Of a DNA stretch of 64,000 bases, positions 12,593 to 20,660 are shown one piece after another. The notes beneath the pieces are model-generated. The model was not told the DNA's origin. It made no database searches and was given only the letters and a program-made list of their open reading frames with translations. The stretch lies in NCBI GenBank assembly GCA_025463135.1, contig JAOAPY010000016.1:124001-188000 (forward strand), read 5' to 3'. Positions within the stretch are counted from its first letter, which is position 1. Each line of letters starts with the position of its first letter. The DNA is from Acidobacteriota bacterium. Its GTDB lineage: Bacteria > Acidobacteriota > Blastocatellia > Pyrinomonadales > Pyrinomonadaceae. The translations under genes were made by a program, and so were the position numbers.

Positions 12593-12626
12593 AAAAAAAA
12601 CGCCCAGCATACAGAGCACGCTGGGC
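12593..12626 (-). terminator. Rho-independent terminator of the giant two-gene unit
   Basis: Read on the - strand, GCCCAGC and GCTGGGC (12620-12626 and 12602-12608) form a 7-bp stem, followed one base on by eight T (12600-12593). It lies about 117 bases after the stop of the 1442-residue gene and converges with the M16 operon. Confidence 0.75.
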
Positions 12627-12742
12627 AAATGACAGGAGGAACCGAGTGTTACGGTTGCCGCTTGATGTGCGGCATTTCCCATAACCTCGATTACTCCGAT
12701 GCTATTCCTTTCCTTAACGGTTGCTCGACCAAATTTGCCCCC

Positions 12743-15700
12743 TTACTCACTCACTAAAGCATCATCCAGTTCGAAGGCTTCGGCATAAATCAAACGGCCG
12801 GGCTGGGCCACCGTCCGCCCTTCCACAATGGTGTAGTTCGCCGAAATATATTCGTGCTCTTCGATCAACAACCTGAATTCGCCCGGCTCCGGCGCTTTGG
12901 TAAAAACAACCGTACCTTTCCAAATGACCAGATCGGGCCAATCCTTAACTGGAGCGTCACCGGCCGAGTCAACCCGCGCAATGGTTTTTGGCACATCCTT
13001 CCAGGTCAAGTCGCTTTCAATGTCCGGATCTCGGCGCTGCACGCGCACTTGAATCCTGGTCGGGCGGGGGCTGGGATCGGTGGGTTTGGGTTCCGCCTTG
13101 ACAACCGCTTTCGGGCCTCGTGGAGCCACGCCCGAGACAACCACGCGCAACGTGCGCGGGTGATGCGGGTCGGCCGTGACCAGCGCCGAACGATCGGGAG
13201 TAAGTTGGGCGAAGTCGGCAAGGACCACGCGCGAGATCATCGCGTCCGGCAAGGCGTGGGGCTGGTAACGCACCAATGCCAACCTAACAAAGGGCATGTA
13301 GACCGGCATAAATGTGTCAATCGTAAGATCCGCGAACCAAAGTTTGCGTTCCGGATCAAATTCCGGCTTAAAGCCTACGACGTCAACTGGTCCGCCATTG
13401 GCGCGCGGTGGTCTTGATTCCTCCAACGACACTCGGGAATCGCTCTCTACGCTGTCGGTAAAGTTACCGATGGCCGGGACTCCTCCCAGTGGGGATGTTT
13501 GCCAGATCGGATCCATGCCCCACTGTGTGATCAGCGACTTGAATTTGTCTCGATTCGCTTCGAGATCTCCGTTCGAGTCGTTCCACAGTGTGACACCCAA
13601 CAGCTCTCCTTCTCCGGAAGAGAACCACGGGCGGTGAAAATACACACGCAAGCCCCCGCCAAAGCGGACACTGCGTTTCATATTCGTCTCAACCTGTCTT
13701 TGCCAGCCAAAGGTTGGAACTACGTAGGCTATGTCGGGCGCCAGTGGGCGCGCTGAGGCCGGCACATCGACTGTTACCTCCTCGCTCTGGCGCGTAAAGC
13801 CGCCCTCCTGATCATCGGGGAAGTACTCGCGAAAGCGCGAGGTTGCGACAGCCGTGTATTTGATCACGTGATGTTTCGTGTCGTTGAGAATGTGACGCGG
13901 AGCAGCCTCTGCGAATACCAACGGGTTTTGCGGGTTACCGGTCCAATCACCGGCGCGGGTAAACGCAATCTGATCGTGTTCCGGGTCGTAATAACCGACG
14001 GCCCTCGGCTTGGTTTCCGAGGCGTAGAGATAGTCTTCGTTAAGACCGGCCAGGGACAATTCGTCGGCGGTAGCGGTGCGATGTACGGTGCCCAGGGTGG
14101 CACTGACTCCATCGTCAACGGGATCGTCGAACGCGGCCATTATGTCTATCCGGGCTGTGCCCGCGCCATGCACTTTTAGTGCGCCGGTTAGATAAGCATC
14201 GGTCGCGCCCGGACGCCGCCAGGCCGTGATTGGCGCCAGCTCGGTGGGATCGCTGACCCCACGATTGGGAGCAGTTTCCAGCGGACTTCCATGCACCTGC
14301 TGGTGCTCAACGTGCAAGGCAGTAAATTCCGGCCGGCCAATTGGCTGTTGTACGGCGTGCACCAGCGTCAACAATCGCGGCGGCGTAAGCATCCAATGGC
14401 CGCCTTCCACCGCCCGCTGCAGCACATGCGCAATCCTGTCGATATCCAGGCCCGGTACCAGAAACTGCTGCTGTGCGTGATTCTCGGTGAGGTCGGCGAT
14501 GTACTCTCGCAGCCATTGCCATACTCCCATTAGTTTCAGGTCGTCGGTGGTCAGGTAACTCGTGAGCGGCACAACTTTGCTGCGACCCTTGGCCAACAGC
14601 ACCGTGAGCACGCGCTCGTCCGGATCCCAATGGGGTGGCTGCTCTGCCTGGCTCACAACCGGCTCGTCCAGGCGCAAGCGAAAGCCGCGCGTATCTTGCC
14701 AATCACCGGAATCACCAAAACTAATCAGCGTGGCCGAGCCCGCCCGTGGATTGGGATCGTTTAAGGGATCGTATTGGACTGGGCCGGCCCCGCCGCTATC
14801 CGGCGTCACTTTTCCGATCGACTCTGCTAACGAGCCGGGCAAGTCGCGAATGGCCGCACCCCGCGACAAGGGATCGGGAAGATAAGGCAAGTCGTCGAGG
14901 CGATCGGCGGCCTCCAGAGGATAGTCGTTTACTTTGCCCTTGATATCGATCGACGCGGTATTGAATTCACCCGCGTCACGATCGACGATTAGTTGATAGG
15001 TTGCCGCATCGCTTTTAAGTTTGCCCGCGGCATCATCAAACATCCCCAGGCGCTCGCCCATTTCGACGCTGGTGCGTGGCGGCAAGATATGCCGGTCGGC
15101 TGCCGTCAGGTCAGCACCTTCGCCATCCTTGCTGAGCTCGGAATTAAAAGTGCGAATCACCAGACGATCCACGGCCGAGCCCGGATCTTTAACAGCTCTT
15201 TCGTCACGGATAATCACGACGGGCGCGCCGACGGGTTCGAATCGCAGATAGGTAAAGCCTTCCGCATCACGCGGCAGTCCAAACACTGACGACAACAGAT
15301 CCGCGACCTCGTTGTCATGCGCCAGACTGTTCCCAGCCAGGTCGACGGCGCGGGCGCGAATGCGATAACGGACGCCAAAGCAAAGACGCGGCAGCGAGCC
15401 CGGCAGCACTTCGTACCTGGTTGTCATCTTGAACGGCGTTTCCGCCTCGTCTTCAGCAAACTTTTCCGGCTCATCGTCGCGCGGCACCGCGTCGGCGGGA
15501 TTGGGATAGCGACTGAGGTGTTTGGCCGGCGTGGGCGCACTCAAACTCCAACCTGACCAACGCGCGATGGCCTCGTGCAAATAGAGATCCGTGGTAGCTG
15601 GTTGTGCGCCCTTTGCCGGCTGCATAGCTGCCAACTGCACAAACCCCTCTTCCCTGTTTTTGGGTACAAAACTCTTGGCGCCAATCTGGTATTGACCTCG

Positions 15701-17071
15701 ACGCAAGTGCAGTGAATGCCAGGCATTGGTGCGCGAGTCCCAAATGTCCAGACGATAGCCGCGGTTCAGGTCCTCAGCAAAAAAGGGCCGCTTCTGCTTC
15801 CCGCCGCTGGTGACTGCATCGTTGAACTCTTTGGACTGGCCCAACGTGTCGAGCAACTGCAAAGCACGCCGGTCCGCATACAGTGAAAAGCCCCCCGAGC
15901 GCAGGGACGGTAGCGTCGCGTCCGGATCAAAAACTTCAGAATGCTGCGCTCGCTCGGGCCGCGCTGAGCTCTCCACATTATGACCGCCGGACGGATTCAT
16001 GGTCTCAGCGAGCATGATGGTTTTGTGCATCCCACCATCGACATCAACCTGAGCCAGGCCAAACAGCTCGGGCTGCAATACGAGCAAGCCAAAGATTGAA
16101 AACGGAGCTCGCAAGTCTTTCCCCGGACGCGGCGCGGCCAGGAAGAGTCGCTTTCCCTCCAGGACCGCATGAATATATGCAGTTTCCAGCTTTGGAGTTT
16201 CCGGCACGATTGCCCAACGCGTTCCGGGCGTAACTTTTTGCACGAAGATGGTGCCCGGTACACCAAAACCTGTCTCTGGTATGAACTTGCGCGGTAACTC
16301 GAGATCGAAAACCAGACCCAGGGCGCGCAGCAGTTCAGGATAGGCATTGAGCGCGGTCAATGCCTGGTGGAAATCGAGAATCTTACCTTTATCAATCTTC
16401 AGCTTGTTACGCTTTTCCGGGGTAGGCATGTGGTGAAACACTGAGAAGGGCACCGCGATGTTTTGCAACGCTCCGGCACTATGATTGCCCGTGATCAATC
16501 CTTCGTGGTCCAGTTCACCACTCAGTGGTGATTGCAGGTGTCTTTCCCAGTTGTCTTTGGTTACACGCACTCGATCGCGCAAGCTCTTAGCCAAATCGCC
16601 GTTCCAGTGAATCTCCATTCCATGGACCAATTCCATTAGTAGCCCGCGGTTTCCGGACTGTTCGCGATTGTTATCGGCGGGTAGCGCCAGCGTCACGCCG
16701 GCTTTCTGATAGATACCTTTAATGGCACTCAACGTGTCCCGGACCGGATAAGAAATGATCGCGCGATCCGAATAGTCGTCGAACTGATGCGAGCGCACAA
16801 AGGTTTCTTCGTTGAATAATTCCTCCCACAAATCGGGCCGCAGAGGATCATGATCGATCTGGGTGGCGAAGGTCCTGGTTCCACAACGCAGTTCCAGCTC
16901 CAGGCCTCTGGTCCTTAAGCGACGCGTCCAGCGCAGCCAGTCGCGAAAGGCGCCCAGATTGTCCGCGCCTTCGAGGCGAGGCGAGACAAGCACTGATACC
17001 GGCATGGTGTCGCCGTCCGCGGTAATCCCACGGGGCATCACGGTGAAAAGAATGGTCTGCTCGATTGCCAT
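12743..17071 (-). CDS. Giant protein of unknown function, second of a pair
   Basis: A 1442-residue protein that I do not recognise. No signal peptide or membrane segment is apparent, so it is probably cytoplasmic or exported by a route without a signal peptide. The sequence is rich in beta-type text and Pro. A stretch near residue 590 (YRIRARAVDLAGNS) resembles a fibronectin-III-like or carbohydrate-binding Ig-like strand pattern, and the C-terminal 250 residues again look like two beta-sandwich domains. I start it at ATG 17071 (MAIEQT), eight bases after GGGGAG; the first in-frame GTG at 17089 would overlap the upstream gene. The gap to the 1086-residue gene is 14 bases, and a terminator follows, so the two genes form a unit. 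No function is proposed. Confidence 0.8.
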   Translation of the reverse strand: MAIEQTILFTVMPRGITADGDTMPVSVLVSPRLEGADNLGAFRDWLRWTRRLRTRGLELELRCGTRTFATQIDHDPLRPDLWEELFNEETFVRSHQFDDYSDRAIISYPVRDTLSAIKGIYQKAGVTLALPADNNREQSGNRGLLMELVHGMEIHWNGDLAKSLRDRVRVTKDNWERHLQSPLSGELDHEGLITGNHSAGALQNIAVPFSVFHHMPTPEKRNKLKIDKGKILDFHQALTALNAYPELLRALGLVFDLELPRKFIPETGFGVPGTIFVQKVTPGTRWAIVPETPKLETAYIHAVLEGKRLFLAAPRPGKDLRAPFSIFGLLVLQPELFGLAQVDVDGGMHKTIMLAETMNPSGGHNVESSARPERAQHSEVFDPDATLPSLRSGGFSLYADRRALQLLDTLGQSKEFNDAVTSGGKQKRPFFAEDLNRGYRLDIWDSRTNAWHSLHLRRGQYQIGAKSFVPKNREEGFVQLAAMQPAKGAQPATTDLYLHEAIARWSGWSLSAPTPAKHLSRYPNPADAVPRDDEPEKFAEDEAETPFKMTTRYEVLPGSLPRLCFGVRYRIRARAVDLAGNSLAHDNEVADLLSSVFGLPRDAEGFTYLRFEPVGAPVVIIRDERAVKDPGSAVDRLVIRTFNSELSKDGEGADLTAADRHILPPRTSVEMGERLGMFDDAAGKLKSDAATYQLIVDRDAGEFNTASIDIKGKVNDYPLEAADRLDDLPYLPDPLSRGAAIRDLPGSLAESIGKVTPDSGGAGPVQYDPLNDPNPRAGSATLISFGDSGDWQDTRGFRLRLDEPVVSQAEQPPHWDPDERVLTVLLAKGRSKVVPLTSYLTTDDLKLMGVWQWLREYIADLTENHAQQQFLVPGLDIDRIAHVLQRAVEGGHWMLTPPRLLTLVHAVQQPIGRPEFTALHVEHQQVHGSPLETAPNRGVSDPTELAPITAWRRPGATDAYLTGALKVHGAGTARIDIMAAFDDPVDDGVSATLGTVHRTATADELSLAGLNEDYLYASETKPRAVGYYDPEHDQIAFTRAGDWTGNPQNPLVFAEAAPRHILNDTKHHVIKYTAVATSRFREYFPDDQEGGFTRQSEEVTVDVPASARPLAPDIAYVVPTFGWQRQVETNMKRSVRFGGGLRVYFHRPWFSSGEGELLGVTLWNDSNGDLEANRDKFKSLITQWGMDPIWQTSPLGGVPAIGNFTDSVESDSRVSLEESRPPRANGGPVDVVGFKPEFDPERKLWFADLTIDTFMPVYMPFVRLALVRYQPHALPDAMISRVVLADFAQLTPDRSALVTADPHHPRTLRVVVSGVAPRGPKAVVKAEPKPTDPSPRPTRIQVRVQRRDPDIESDLTWKDVPKTIARVDSAGDAPVKDWPDLVIWKGTVVFTKAPEPGEFRLLIEEHEYISANYTIVEGRTVAQPGRLIYAEAFELDDALVSE

Positions 17072-17085
17072 GGTTTCTCTCCCCA

Positions 17086-20000
17086 TCACGCAAAGGCCAG
17101 CGCGTAGTCATTCCACATCTGCGGCTCGCTGAACAATTGACCGAACTTCGGGTCTCCGCTGCCACCAAAGGCGCGCTCAACTGTAAGTTCAACCGAAGCG
17201 CTAAAGAACAGTACTTCTACTTCCACTGTGAGTGTCGCCCGGCCAAAGGCCTTGTCCCGCCCGCTGTCATAGGTAAAGCTCAAGTTAAATTCCACAGTTA
17301 CCTTGATAATCCCCAGGACGCTGAGCGAGCCGCCCATGCGCAGATAACCGGAGAGGATCGCCGCGAGCTCAGTGGAGGTTTCTTTTCGTTGCAGTGAAAA
17401 ATAGATTCCCGCCATGATGTGGACTTCGCCACTGGCCACCCCGATATCGATCGCTGCAGCGGCGCCAAACTCGATGGCCGCCTCGAGCAGTTTGATTCCA
17501 GCCGTGTCGAGTTGTAAGTGGAAAAACCCGCCGCCGCCAAAGAGGCTGACGGTCAGCAGGAAGGGATGTTGTCGCTCGCAAAAATTGAAATCGAATACCG
17601 GCTTGCCATCTAGAAACGGCAACGTCAGGGCCGCACCCACGCTTACGTCCTTGAGGGCAAACACGCCTACGGCAATCGGTGGCAACGAAAAGGAGAAGCC
17701 TGCCTTAATGCCGAGCGGGTTCTGCAGCAAATCAAGCGAGGGGCCCTGCCCGAAAAGTCCGGGCGGAATAGCATTGCGCAACTCCTCCACGAATTGCAGA
17801 TCCCCTGTGAACGTGAGTGGATCCGGCTGCAGTGCGACTGTGACGTCAGGTTTCTGACTGTTCTTCGTGGTAAAGCTGAAGCGGGAAAAATGTATCGCTA
17901 TGTCATTAACGATCGTGACAGTAAAGTTGGTCAACGTTCCCGTGAAGGTGGAAGACGGCGGGTCAGTAATTCCTCCGGGATTCACCGATTTTCTGATCTC
18001 AGCATGAACCGTGAAAGTACTGCCATCGTCCTTCTCAATTTTCGCAACGCCCAGATCTTTGCCCTTAAACTCCGGCTCCCAATCCAGTCTGGTAACGATA
18101 ACTGTGCCGCCATTTTCGAGAGTCGTGTGCATCTGCGGTGCATTCGTGTTCAAGGCAATAGGCGTCGGTAAGTCCATCAAATCCATCAAATCGAAGGTGC
18201 CAAACAGCTTTGCGCCTCCACTCTTGGGGAAAAACTCTTTCGGATCAAACTTATTGGCAACAGCATCCTCAGCCTTTCCAGCCAGCGGACCGAGTTGGCG
18301 CGACAGCGTCGACAGACCCAGATTCGGAGTGGCAAAGCCTCCTGCCTTGTCCGCCCGAAAATCGTTCTGCATCTTTTTCAAACCCGCATTCGGGTCGACG
18401 GGATTCAGATCGCTGTAGCTCGCATCGACAATTTGGGCAAAGACGCCGGTCTTATTCAACGGATCGAATCCATTGGCAACGTATGGCGGAAAGAAACGAA
18501 TTGTAGTCGCTTCATTAGTGCCCAGTAGCTCCTGCACCTGAGGAATTTTTACAGAGGCGCGCAGCATTTTCGGCTGTACCCGCGCCGGATCCATGAAGAA
18601 ATTCAATGTCTGCGTAACGAGTTGCGTGTTGCTGTTGCCCGGGGCGGGTTTCGCGAACATCACTTTCTGTCCGGGAATTTCGACATTGCGATCCGGGATG
18701 TTCTCGCTCTTATTGAAGTATGCGACTGCCGGCGCCGGAGCCTCGTAATCACTCTTGGACACAAACATTAATGGCACCGAGAAATCGGCCGCATGGCCGT
18801 CAATGTCATACCCGACTCCATGAAACTTGAAAGGCACGGGCGTGGTTGGGTCCGCCATGACCTTGACCCAGAAGGACCGATGTCCCACCACTATGTCAGG
18901 TTCGGCGATGTCCGGCGTTACCAGTGTCGTTAGTCGCACGCGTTTGAACGGATTGCCGAAATCATTGTCGGGATAGATTTTTTCCGGCTCGCGAACAACG
19001 ATAAACATTCGCTGGACCAGATAGGCCCCGATGATGCCTTTGTTTTTCCTGAATTTTCGCTCGGTGATTTTGATCAGCGCGGCTTTGTTGCGAAAGCCCC
19101 ACAGTTCGCCCTCGTAAACAATGCGCACATAATGGTCGCGCCCCTGGGTCGCGATATGTACCCATTCGGAAAGATCAAGCGAGGGTTCGGGCTCTGGTTT
19201 CAAAATAGGTACGAACAATTCAGCGAATTCGCGACTGCGCAGCGGAGCCGGCGCCAGTGCCCGGCGTACCGGTTCAAGCAAGTCGACAGAAGCATGGAGT
19301 CCTTCACGCCGTGGCGGTGCAGCATGTGGCGGCGACCAGTGGCCGCGTGACTTCAACCAGCCACCCAGCGGCGACAGCATGATCTGTTCAGCTTCAAAGG
19401 GCTCAGGCACGTAAGGCACATTCAAGCTAAAATTGAAATGCACTCCGAGGTCGATTTGAATCAATGGATCCACCGCAAAAGGGTGTACGGCGCCGAACTC
19501 ACGCGCTACTTCAAAACCACTAAAAGCCGAAGTCAGAATTACGATTTGGTGGCGGTCATTCGGTGACATCGCAGTGCGGCCCAAATCAGGGTCCAGTGCG
19601 GCGGGTTCGGGATAGGGGGCGTAGTCCGGAGACCAAATTGCACGCAACGAGGCTGTTTCCTTCTTGGTAAGCTCGGCGATTCCTTCGGGGTGCTCATCTG
19701 TCACCGCCACTTTGTTAGCCAGGCGTGTATGCCAAAGTTCGGTGCGCCCTCGCGAAGTAAAGAGTCCGGGGCGGTGCAACCACCGCACCTCACTGGTGGG
19801 AGAAATGATCAAACGGTAGGGCAGTTCGATCGCCGTTTCGGTCGCGGTTGGCGGCTTGATTAGTGGCGCCTTTGCGATTTGATCCGGCGTCGGTGTGCGA
19901 CTAATGGCGGCGATTGGATTGACGCTTAGCTCGAGGCCCGACCATTCAAGCAGCCCCGCAATTGAAAACGGGATGCGTGCTTCCGCCTTCACCTTGAACA

Positions 20001-20346
20001 CCAGACGAGTTGGCTTGCCAATGCGCGCGCCCACTTCCCCCGGCAGGTCGGGGTCTTTCATTGTTTTTGCAGTTTCAATTTCCGGATCTTTTCGCTCGGT
20101 TTTGCTTCCGGGTTCAATGACCTTGGGTGGGTCCGAGTGGTCCTGGGGAACTATCGCTGCCTCAAAGTAGGCGTGCTCGGCAATCGTCTGCGGCGGGAAT
20201 GTGATGATCAGAAAGGCCGCCGTCTCAGGCTTGTCAACTACCAGCTCAGGCTTTTTTTTCTTGCCTGATTCCAGTCGCAAGTTGATCGCTTCAACTCTTA
20301 GGTTAAGCAGGTCGTCAGGACGAACAAGATCGATCTTGAACACCAC
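17086..20346 (-). CDS. Giant protein of unknown function, first of a pair
   Basis: A 1086-residue protein I do not recognise. It begins MVFKIDLVRPDDLLNLRVEA without signal peptide; GGGAGG lies about ten bases before the tandem GTG codons at 20346. The first two thirds are Pro-rich and beta-like. The last 230 residues are unusual: amphipathic, Gly/Ala/Phe-rich alternating text (FSLPPIAVGVFALKDVSVGA; FGGGGFFHLQLDTAG; AAAAIDIGVASGEVHIMAG) that would suit long beta strands packed in a barrel or solenoid. It is followed 14 bases later by the 1442-residue gene. Codon and base use look like the neighbours, so no recent transfer is suggested. Role unknown; a large structural or surface assembly is only a guess. 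Confidence 0.8.
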   Translation of the reverse strand: MVFKIDLVRPDDLLNLRVEAINLRLESGKKKKPELVVDKPETAAFLIITFPPQTIAEHAYFEAAIVPQDHSDPPKVIEPGSKTERKDPEIETAKTMKDPDLPGEVGARIGKPTRLVFKVKAEARIPFSIAGLLEWSGLELSVNPIAAISRTPTPDQIAKAPLIKPPTATETAIELPYRLIISPTSEVRWLHRPGLFTSRGRTELWHTRLANKVAVTDEHPEGIAELTKKETASLRAIWSPDYAPYPEPAALDPDLGRTAMSPNDRHQIVILTSAFSGFEVAREFGAVHPFAVDPLIQIDLGVHFNFSLNVPYVPEPFEAEQIMLSPLGGWLKSRGHWSPPHAAPPRREGLHASVDLLEPVRRALAPAPLRSREFAELFVPILKPEPEPSLDLSEWVHIATQGRDHYVRIVYEGELWGFRNKAALIKITERKFRKNKGIIGAYLVQRMFIVVREPEKIYPDNDFGNPFKRVRLTTLVTPDIAEPDIVVGHRSFWVKVMADPTTPVPFKFHGVGYDIDGHAADFSVPLMFVSKSDYEAPAPAVAYFNKSENIPDRNVEIPGQKVMFAKPAPGNSNTQLVTQTLNFFMDPARVQPKMLRASVKIPQVQELLGTNEATTIRFFPPYVANGFDPLNKTGVFAQIVDASYSDLNPVDPNAGLKKMQNDFRADKAGGFATPNLGLSTLSRQLGPLAGKAEDAVANKFDPKEFFPKSGGAKLFGTFDLMDLMDLPTPIALNTNAPQMHTTLENGGTVIVTRLDWEPEFKGKDLGVAKIEKDDGSTFTVHAEIRKSVNPGGITDPPSSTFTGTLTNFTVTIVNDIAIHFSRFSFTTKNSQKPDVTVALQPDPLTFTGDLQFVEELRNAIPPGLFGQGPSLDLLQNPLGIKAGFSFSLPPIAVGVFALKDVSVGAALTLPFLDGKPVFDFNFCERQHPFLLTVSLFGGGGFFHLQLDTAGIKLLEAAIEFGAAAAIDIGVASGEVHIMAGIYFSLQRKETSTELAAILSGYLRMGGSLSVLGIIKVTVEFNLSFTYDSGRDKAFGRATLTVEVEVLFFSASVELTVERAFGGSGDPKFGQLFSEPQMWNDYALAFA

Positions 20347-20585: not shown

Positions 20586-20660
20586 TTGTAACGCAAACTG
20601 TTAGTTTGCGACCGCGTTGAATGCCACCCCTGCTTCGCAAACTAACAGTTTGCGTTACAA
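20586..20660. repeat. Palindromic repeat (TTGTAACGC family), complete copy
   Basis: Perfect 25-bp inverted arms, beginning TTGTAACGCAAACTG at 20586 and ending CAGTTTGCGTTACAA at 20660, flank a spacer with CGCGTTGAATGCCA. Other copies lie at 21967-22047, 25952-25998 and 32940-33050. It follows the stop of the Ycf48-like gene by five bases and could act as its terminator. Confidence 0.78.

What the first reader, a model, noticed from the sequence alone, without database searches (positions are those of the whole stretch)
12743..20346. Two giant unknown proteins in one tight unit
Seen: genes of 3261 and 4329 bases, 14 bases apart, good ribosome sites, shared terminator, no signal peptides. The first ends in 230 residues of alternating hydrophobic, Gly/Ala-rich text suited to a large beta structure; the second has Ig-like stretches. 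I recognise neither. Inferred: they form one complex, 7.6 kb of coding cost kept intact, so it is likely to matter.
Basis: partly seen in the sequence, partly recalled or inferred. Interest (0 to 1): 0.72.

Follow-up and report, generated by a model that had tools for sequence, protein, structure and literature searches.

The report
Widespread uncharacterised giant two-protein module
Two very large bacterial proteins of unknown function, encoded side by side, belong to a hitherto unnamed two-gene unit that has moved as a pair between at least eleven bacterial phyla, so they very probably work together, although what they do (possibly carrying greasy molecules or touching membranes) is still unproven.

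Summary
In detail: gene A (17086-20346, 1086 aa) and gene B (12743-17071, 1442 aa) lie 14 bases apart on the minus strand, with a terminator after B. Neither matches Pfam, NCBIfam, PHROGs, PADLOC or PDB sequences. The pair is no orphan. Type I A->B pairs, always in that order on one strand, occur in about 45 further loci of eleven named phyla, some on plasmids. In 396 genomes of the own phylum, all 16 with A have B beside it. The pair tree ignores taxonomy: the unit travels horizontally. A distant type II pair exists too, one copy in this very genome; hhalign links B to B' (E 2e-14) and the C-terminal domain of A to that of A' (E 3e-10). That domain is a strictly alternating amphipathic beta-meander. 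In nine relatives A begins with a twin-arginine (Tat-like) signal, B never does; on one plasmid a tatA gene follows. Best reading: an obligate two-subunit complex, A presenting a membrane- or lipid-facing beta-sheet, B an Ig-like scaffold, co-exported folded in some lineages and without signal in others, including this one. Functional unit: strong. Physical complex: likely. Lipid role: speculative.

The parts
17086..20346 (-). Gene A, 1086 aa, first gene of the pair; mostly beta; no signal peptide in this copy
   Evidence: ORF; relatives; model pLDDT 73, pTM 0.60
17167..18159 (-). C-terminal amphipathic beta-meander domain of A (residues 730-1060), shared with distant type II A proteins
   Evidence: hhalign E 3.5e-9 and 2.8e-10; porin-like half-barrel matches Z about 11, many ties
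12743..17071 (-). Gene B, 1442 aa from the ATG with a ribosome-binding site (mechanical ORF 1448 aa from 17089)
   Evidence: relatives; partial model pLDDT 65
12785..14350 (-). C-terminal third of B, predicted Ig/Fn3-like beta modules
   Evidence: Z up to 8.2, not diagnostic
15218..16438 (-). Core region of B (ORF residues about 218-624) homologous to type II B proteins
   Evidence: hhalign prob 98.3, E 2.3e-14
17072..17085 (-). 14-base intergenic gap with Shine-Dalgarno-like GGGGAGAG for B
12601..12627 (-). Intrinsic terminator after B

Best explanation
A and B are the two obligate subunits of one accessory protein complex encoded by a self-contained, horizontally mobile two-gene unit (shown at the level of gene order, co-occurrence and co-transfer; the physical complex is inferred). 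A contributes, at its C-terminus, a sheet of about eleven successive amphipathic antiparallel strands with one greasy and one polar face; I infer that this curls into a groove or barrel that holds a hydrophobic ligand or touches a membrane. B, a chain with Ig/Fn3-like modules, is inferred to scaffold or cap A. In a subset of lineages A has an N-terminal Tat-like signal and B has none, so the folded pair is inferred to be exported together, B hitch-hiking on A. In the window's own short-form clade both lack signals, and the complex would act in the cytosol or leave by lysis or another route.
For: Order and adjacency without exception among intact copies: 21 genome loci of eleven phyla plus plasmids, 16 of 16 genomes of the own phylum, 10 of 10 type II loci. 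A and B distances correlate at r = 0.947 over 325 pairs, and the concatenated tree mixes phyla with high SH-aLRT support. Amphipathic alternation is conserved in both types. Tat-like signals in A of L051-L056, L061, L062, L063, one above the curated TIGR01409 cut-off, and a TatA gene 50 bases after B on an S. meliloti plasmid. No such signal in any B checked. Weak lipid hints: Foldseek rows for LptD, P47, MTP and ApoB, a sub-threshold vitellogenin beta-sheet hit in L064 A, phospholipase genes next to two plasmid copies.
Against: No interface was predicted or measured. The co-distance correlation is expected for any two genes that travel together. The best fold matches of the A C-terminus are outer-membrane porins, so a membrane barrel is not excluded, though monoderm hosts (Streptomyces, Symbiobacteriaceae) and Tat-like signals argue against a BAM-inserted barrel. 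Most Tat matches are below curated cut-offs, and most type I A proteins have none. The lipid hints are individually insignificant.
Confidence: 0.42

Rival explanations
1. The pair is a secreted or lysis-released two-component effector (toxin-like): the amphipathic C-terminal sheet of A forms a membrane pore or passes cargo, while B and the variable A N-terminus give targeting. No immunity gene is needed because the target is eukaryotic or distant.
For: Large size, patchy and partly plasmid-borne distribution in soil, plant- and surface-associated bacteria, variable A N-termini (long Tat-like domain, extensions in L042/L045, giant 2000-3300 aa forms), porin-like fold matches.
Against: No catalytic domain and no known toxin family match; no dedicated secretion system or lysis cassette next to most copies; also present in cyanobacteria and methanotrophs.
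Confidence: 0.2
2. It is a cell-envelope or extracellular structural complex (surface fibre, coat or adhesin), Ig-like B combined with beta-rich A.
For: Ig/Fn3-like modules, beta-rich A, Tat-like signals in some A; in Rhodothermales and Ignavibacteria relatives, secreted genes of shared families adjoin the pair.
Against: No cell-wall anchor, repeats or sorting signal noticed; most copies without any export signal; mono- and diderm hosts alike.
Confidence: 0.15
3. It is an anti-phage or anti-plasmid defence (or exclusion) system.
For: Restriction, CRISPR type I-D, Dpd or methylase genes lie within about 15 kb of four plasmid copies; two genes, patchy, horizontally mobile.
Against: No PADLOC match; most chromosomal and several plasmid copies have no evident defence neighbours; no nuclease or NTPase signature; Tat-like export in a subset; no neighbour-density control was run.
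Confidence: 0.13
4. The two genes are inherited together but their proteins act separately.
For: Physical interaction is untested.
Against: Invariant order over two types so divergent that essentially only profile comparison links them, and no intact singleton seen.
Confidence: 0.1

Closest known systems
Large bridge-like or tubular lipid-binding proteins (AsmA/TamB/VPS13 beta-groove; P47/OrfX TULIP; vitellogenin/MTP/ApoB)
   Same: Long antiparallel amphipathic beta-sheet with one hydrophobic face; the P47 family is likewise spread over divergent bacterial phyla (PMC6791001).
   Different: No significant sequence or profile match; Foldseek rows are weak with rmsd above 20 A; no membrane anchor seen.
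Outer-membrane beta-barrels (porins, LptD, autotransporter domains)
   Same: Meander of alternating strands; the A C-terminus aligns with several porins at Z about 11.
   Different: Present in monoderm hosts, no Sec signal, Tat-like signals in relatives; many unrelated barrels tie, so only a strand arrangement is shared.
Tat hitch-hiker complexes (for example hydrogenase subunit pairs; from general knowledge)
   Same: One subunit with a twin-arginine-type signal, the partner without.
   Different: No cofactor or redox family match; co-export not tested; the window copy has no signal.
Large multi-component insecticidal toxin complexes (resemblance recalled from memory, not tested)
   Same: Giant proteins encoded together, patchy, in soil bacteria.
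   Different: No matching family in Pfam.

Membership tests
AsmA/TamB/VPS13-type lipid-transfer proteins | Profile match to a described family of this kind | tested here: not met
   No Pfam match at E<=1 for A
AsmA/TamB/VPS13-type lipid-transfer proteins | Extended amphipathic beta-sheet with a continuous hydrophobic face | tested here: met
   Strands 902-1060: one face mean hydropathy about +1.8 to +3.7, the other mostly below zero; z 7.1. Groove geometry itself was not tested
AsmA/TamB/VPS13-type lipid-transfer proteins | Binds or transfers lipid | not testable with these tools
   needs purified protein
P47/OrfX TULIP proteins | Profile match to the P47 family | tested here: not met
   Pfam scan; PDB profile searches
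P47/OrfX TULIP proteins | TULIP fold | tested here: inconclusive
   5wix E 1.1e-3, TM 0.06/0.11, rmsd 23.5
Outer-membrane beta-barrel proteins | Closed transmembrane barrel | tested here: inconclusive
   Z about 11 half-barrel matches, many ties
Outer-membrane beta-barrel proteins | Export by Sec in diderm hosts | tested here: not met
   No signal in window A, Tat-like in relatives; Streptomyces and Symbiobacteriaceae copies
Tat substrates | N-terminal twin-arginine signal before a hydrophobic stretch | tested here: not met
   Absent in the window copy; present in nine relatives, one above the TIGR01409 cut-off
Known anti-phage defence systems | Match to PADLOC models | tested here: not met
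   0 families for four proteins
Phage structural proteins | PHROG match or regular presence in phage genomes | tested here: not met
   No PHROG match, no phage record; one 16.7 kb putative viral contig holds a pair

The most novel reading that the evidence does not exclude
A previously undescribed superfamily of horizontally mobile two-gene modules that make giant two-subunit beta-rich protein complexes, exported folded through Tat in some bacteria, which carry lipids or other hydrophobic cargo or act on membranes; with at least two anciently diverged types that can coexist in one genome.
Probability: 0.35. Interest if true: 0.85.

Novelty: categorically new. Interest (0 to 1): 0.62.

Why it matters
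A 7.6-kb unit that is kept intact and passed as a pair among eleven or more phyla, on chromosomes and conjugative plasmids, must pay for itself, yet no family, domain or system name in the libraries searched covers it. It defines a clean, testable object: one pair, two types, a conserved C-terminal beta-sheet in A, and variable N-termini. If the complex carries lipids or crosses the membrane folded, it would be a new way for bacteria to handle hydrophobic cargo or membranes. Novelty here means that no match was found; it does not prove that nobody has seen these genes.

Tried and rejected
Pfam, NCBIfam, PHROGs and PADLOC scans of window and variant A/B proteins gave nothing above threshold. 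PDB sequence and profile searches: only noise. Foldseek on viral models: only weak phage fibre or porin-like rows. A close-relative peptide scan with A alone found nothing, whereas B recovered 23 loci. Conserved third gene: none over all loci; recurring neighbours only in the Rhodothermales/Ignavibacteria group. HExxH in B (L052, L058 only) is not family-wide, so no protease claim. The middle and N-terminal parts of A and A' showed no detectable homology. Literature searches found no paper on the pair. Type II in viral contigs: none.

Full report
WHAT IS THERE. Two open reading frames fill 12743-20346 on the minus strand. Gene A runs from GTG at 20346 to TGA at 17086 (1086 aa). Gene B is best read from the ATG at 17071, 14 bases downstream, behind GGGGAGAG, to 12743 (1442 aa). 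A rho-independent terminator with eight T follows B. GC content (0.55 and 0.58) is close to that of the window (0.555). The genes upstream (Ycf48-like, VIT/VWA) and downstream (M16 peptidases, opposite strand) have ordinary family matches and no evident link. Neither A nor B matches any curated family at a meaningful level or any PDB sequence, also not as profiles.

RELATIVES AND ADJACENCY. In the own genome A and B are single; only a fragment of A was seen in one of 60 near relatives. Further away the pair is widespread: 23 genome contigs with B relatives from Pseudomonadota, Thermodesulfobacteriota, Cyanobacteriota, Chloroflexota, Planctomycetota, Actinomycetota, Acidobacteriota, Bacillota (Symbiobacteriaceae), Bacteroidota, Rhodothermota and Ignavibacteriota, plus plasmids of Cupriavidus, Rhizobium, Sinorhizobium, Streptomyces, Diaphorobacter, Agrobacterium and Ruegeria. 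Wherever the contig reaches far enough, A stands directly upstream of B on the same strand. Profile searches of 396 genomes of the own phylum found A in 16 and B in the same 16, adjacent except where the assembly breaks (one genome has A split over two contigs), plus three weak partial B hits. Apparent singletons on plasmids are truncated remnants (L093, L094, L095). A few copies are frameshifted (L060, L092, Tistrella L085).

HORIZONTAL TRANSFER AS A UNIT. A tree of 26 concatenated pairs mixes phyla with strong branches: the window pair joins Rhodoblastus (SH-aLRT 99), Methylobacter lies within cyanobacteria, Bradyrhizobium pairs with an Acidobacteriaceae bin; A and B distances correlate at r = 0.947. 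The quick tree has two long branches (L063, L078) whose place is unsure, and some rows are metagenome bins whose contigs may be misassigned.

A SECOND, DISTANT TYPE. The three weak B hits led to pairs of roughly 1600-1800 aa A' and 1200-1400 aa B' proteins in the same order. More such pairs lie on plasmids of Candidatus Chlorohelix, Microvirga and Tistrella, in further relatives, and, unexpectedly, in the window's own genome on contig C48, where A' and B' are 56% and 66% identical to the Chlorohelix plasmid pair. hhalign links B with B' (prob 98.3, E 2.3e-14, 331 columns) and the A C-terminus with that of A' (E 3.5e-9; 266 columns, E 2.8e-10). The rest of A and A' is not detectably related. 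The unit is therefore defined by the A C-terminal domain and the B core.

ANATOMY OF A AND B. The model of A (pLDDT 73, pTM 0.60) is mostly beta; residues 902-1060 form long antiparallel strands with one hydrophobic and one polar face. The alternation is z 7.1 for type I and 8.5 for type II averaged profiles, and absent from B. Single A sequences score 3.9-6.9, except the frameshifted L085 A' (1.9), against a 95th percentile of 2.7 for neighbouring ORFs. PDB comparison gives porin-like half-barrels at Z about 11 with no stand-out, and weak rows for LptD, P47, MTP and ApoB. The B model is partial (residues 236-1435) and weaker (pLDDT 65, pTM 0.43); its C-terminal part looks like Ig/Fn3 modules, at a level that is common.

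EXPORT. Nine A relatives (Symbiobacteriaceae, Rhodothermales, Bacteroidota, Ignavibacteria, Terriglobia, Desulforhopalus, Streptomyces and two rhizobial plasmids) have an (S/T)RR-x-(F/L/M/V)-type motif followed by a hydrophobic stretch near the N-terminus. One passes the curated TIGR01409 cut-off and several fall below it. With a stricter filter, 2 of 373 neighbouring ORFs match; that filter confirmed four of the six that it was run on and missed two. No B has it. The S. meliloti plasmid carries a TatA gene (PF02416, 36.7 bits) right after B. The window copy and its clade lack any signal. The step from these facts to co-export of a folded A-B complex is inference.

FUNCTION. The unit level (two genes, one function) is strongly supported; a physical complex is likely. 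A membrane- or lipid-facing role for the A sheet follows from its amphipathic pattern and is the reading I commit to, with low to moderate confidence. Phospholipase genes next to two copies and defence genes near four plasmid copies are leads without controls. Effector, structural and defence readings remain open.

VERDICT.

Noticed in passing
window 20586-20611 and 20635-20660 (between the Ycf48-like gene and A); also 25959, 33027: Perfect 26-bp inverted repeat around TAACGCAAACTGTTAGTTTGCG. The motif occurs 89 times (up to 2 mismatches) in this genome against 0 for the reversed control, often as facing doublets about 25 nt apart: a REP/REPIN-like dispersed palindrome.
   Followed up: partly
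own genome contig C48, L081:8420-17086: Second, distant (type II) pair of giant genes, near a thioesterase and a condensation-domain-like fragment and an IS21-like transposase gene by eye.
   Followed up: yes
L052:9992-14539 and L058:2-1072: B proteins of Rhodothermales carry an insert with HExxH (LLGHEASHTIQQ, SHEAAHVLQQ), reminiscent by eye of DUF4157; not found in other B proteins.
   Followed up: partly
L061:10113-24804, L062:12539-27213, L091:8062-23696, L092:9229-23928: On rhizobial and roseobacter plasmids A is giant (3000-3300 aa) and B mostly 1770-1900 aa; the insertions have no Pfam match where scanned.
   Followed up: partly
L052:14536-17182, L058:1069-4191, L053:810-4851 and 14431-16530: Two recurring gene families with signal-peptide-like starts (one 640-700 aa, one with PPPNQLKVADLWR) adjoin the pair in Rhodothermales/Ignavibacteria only; no Pfam match.
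   Followed up: partly
L083:6173-8347 and L085:19419-21539: Catalase genes lie near two type II plasmid pairs; may be chance.
   Followed up: no
L065/L087 (IMGVR_UViG_3300004093_000021): One putative viral contig of 16.7 kb holds a complete type I pair beside ORFs that look by eye like a terminase and an HNH protein; it may be a phage cargo, a prophage boundary or a misassigned contig.
   Followed up: no
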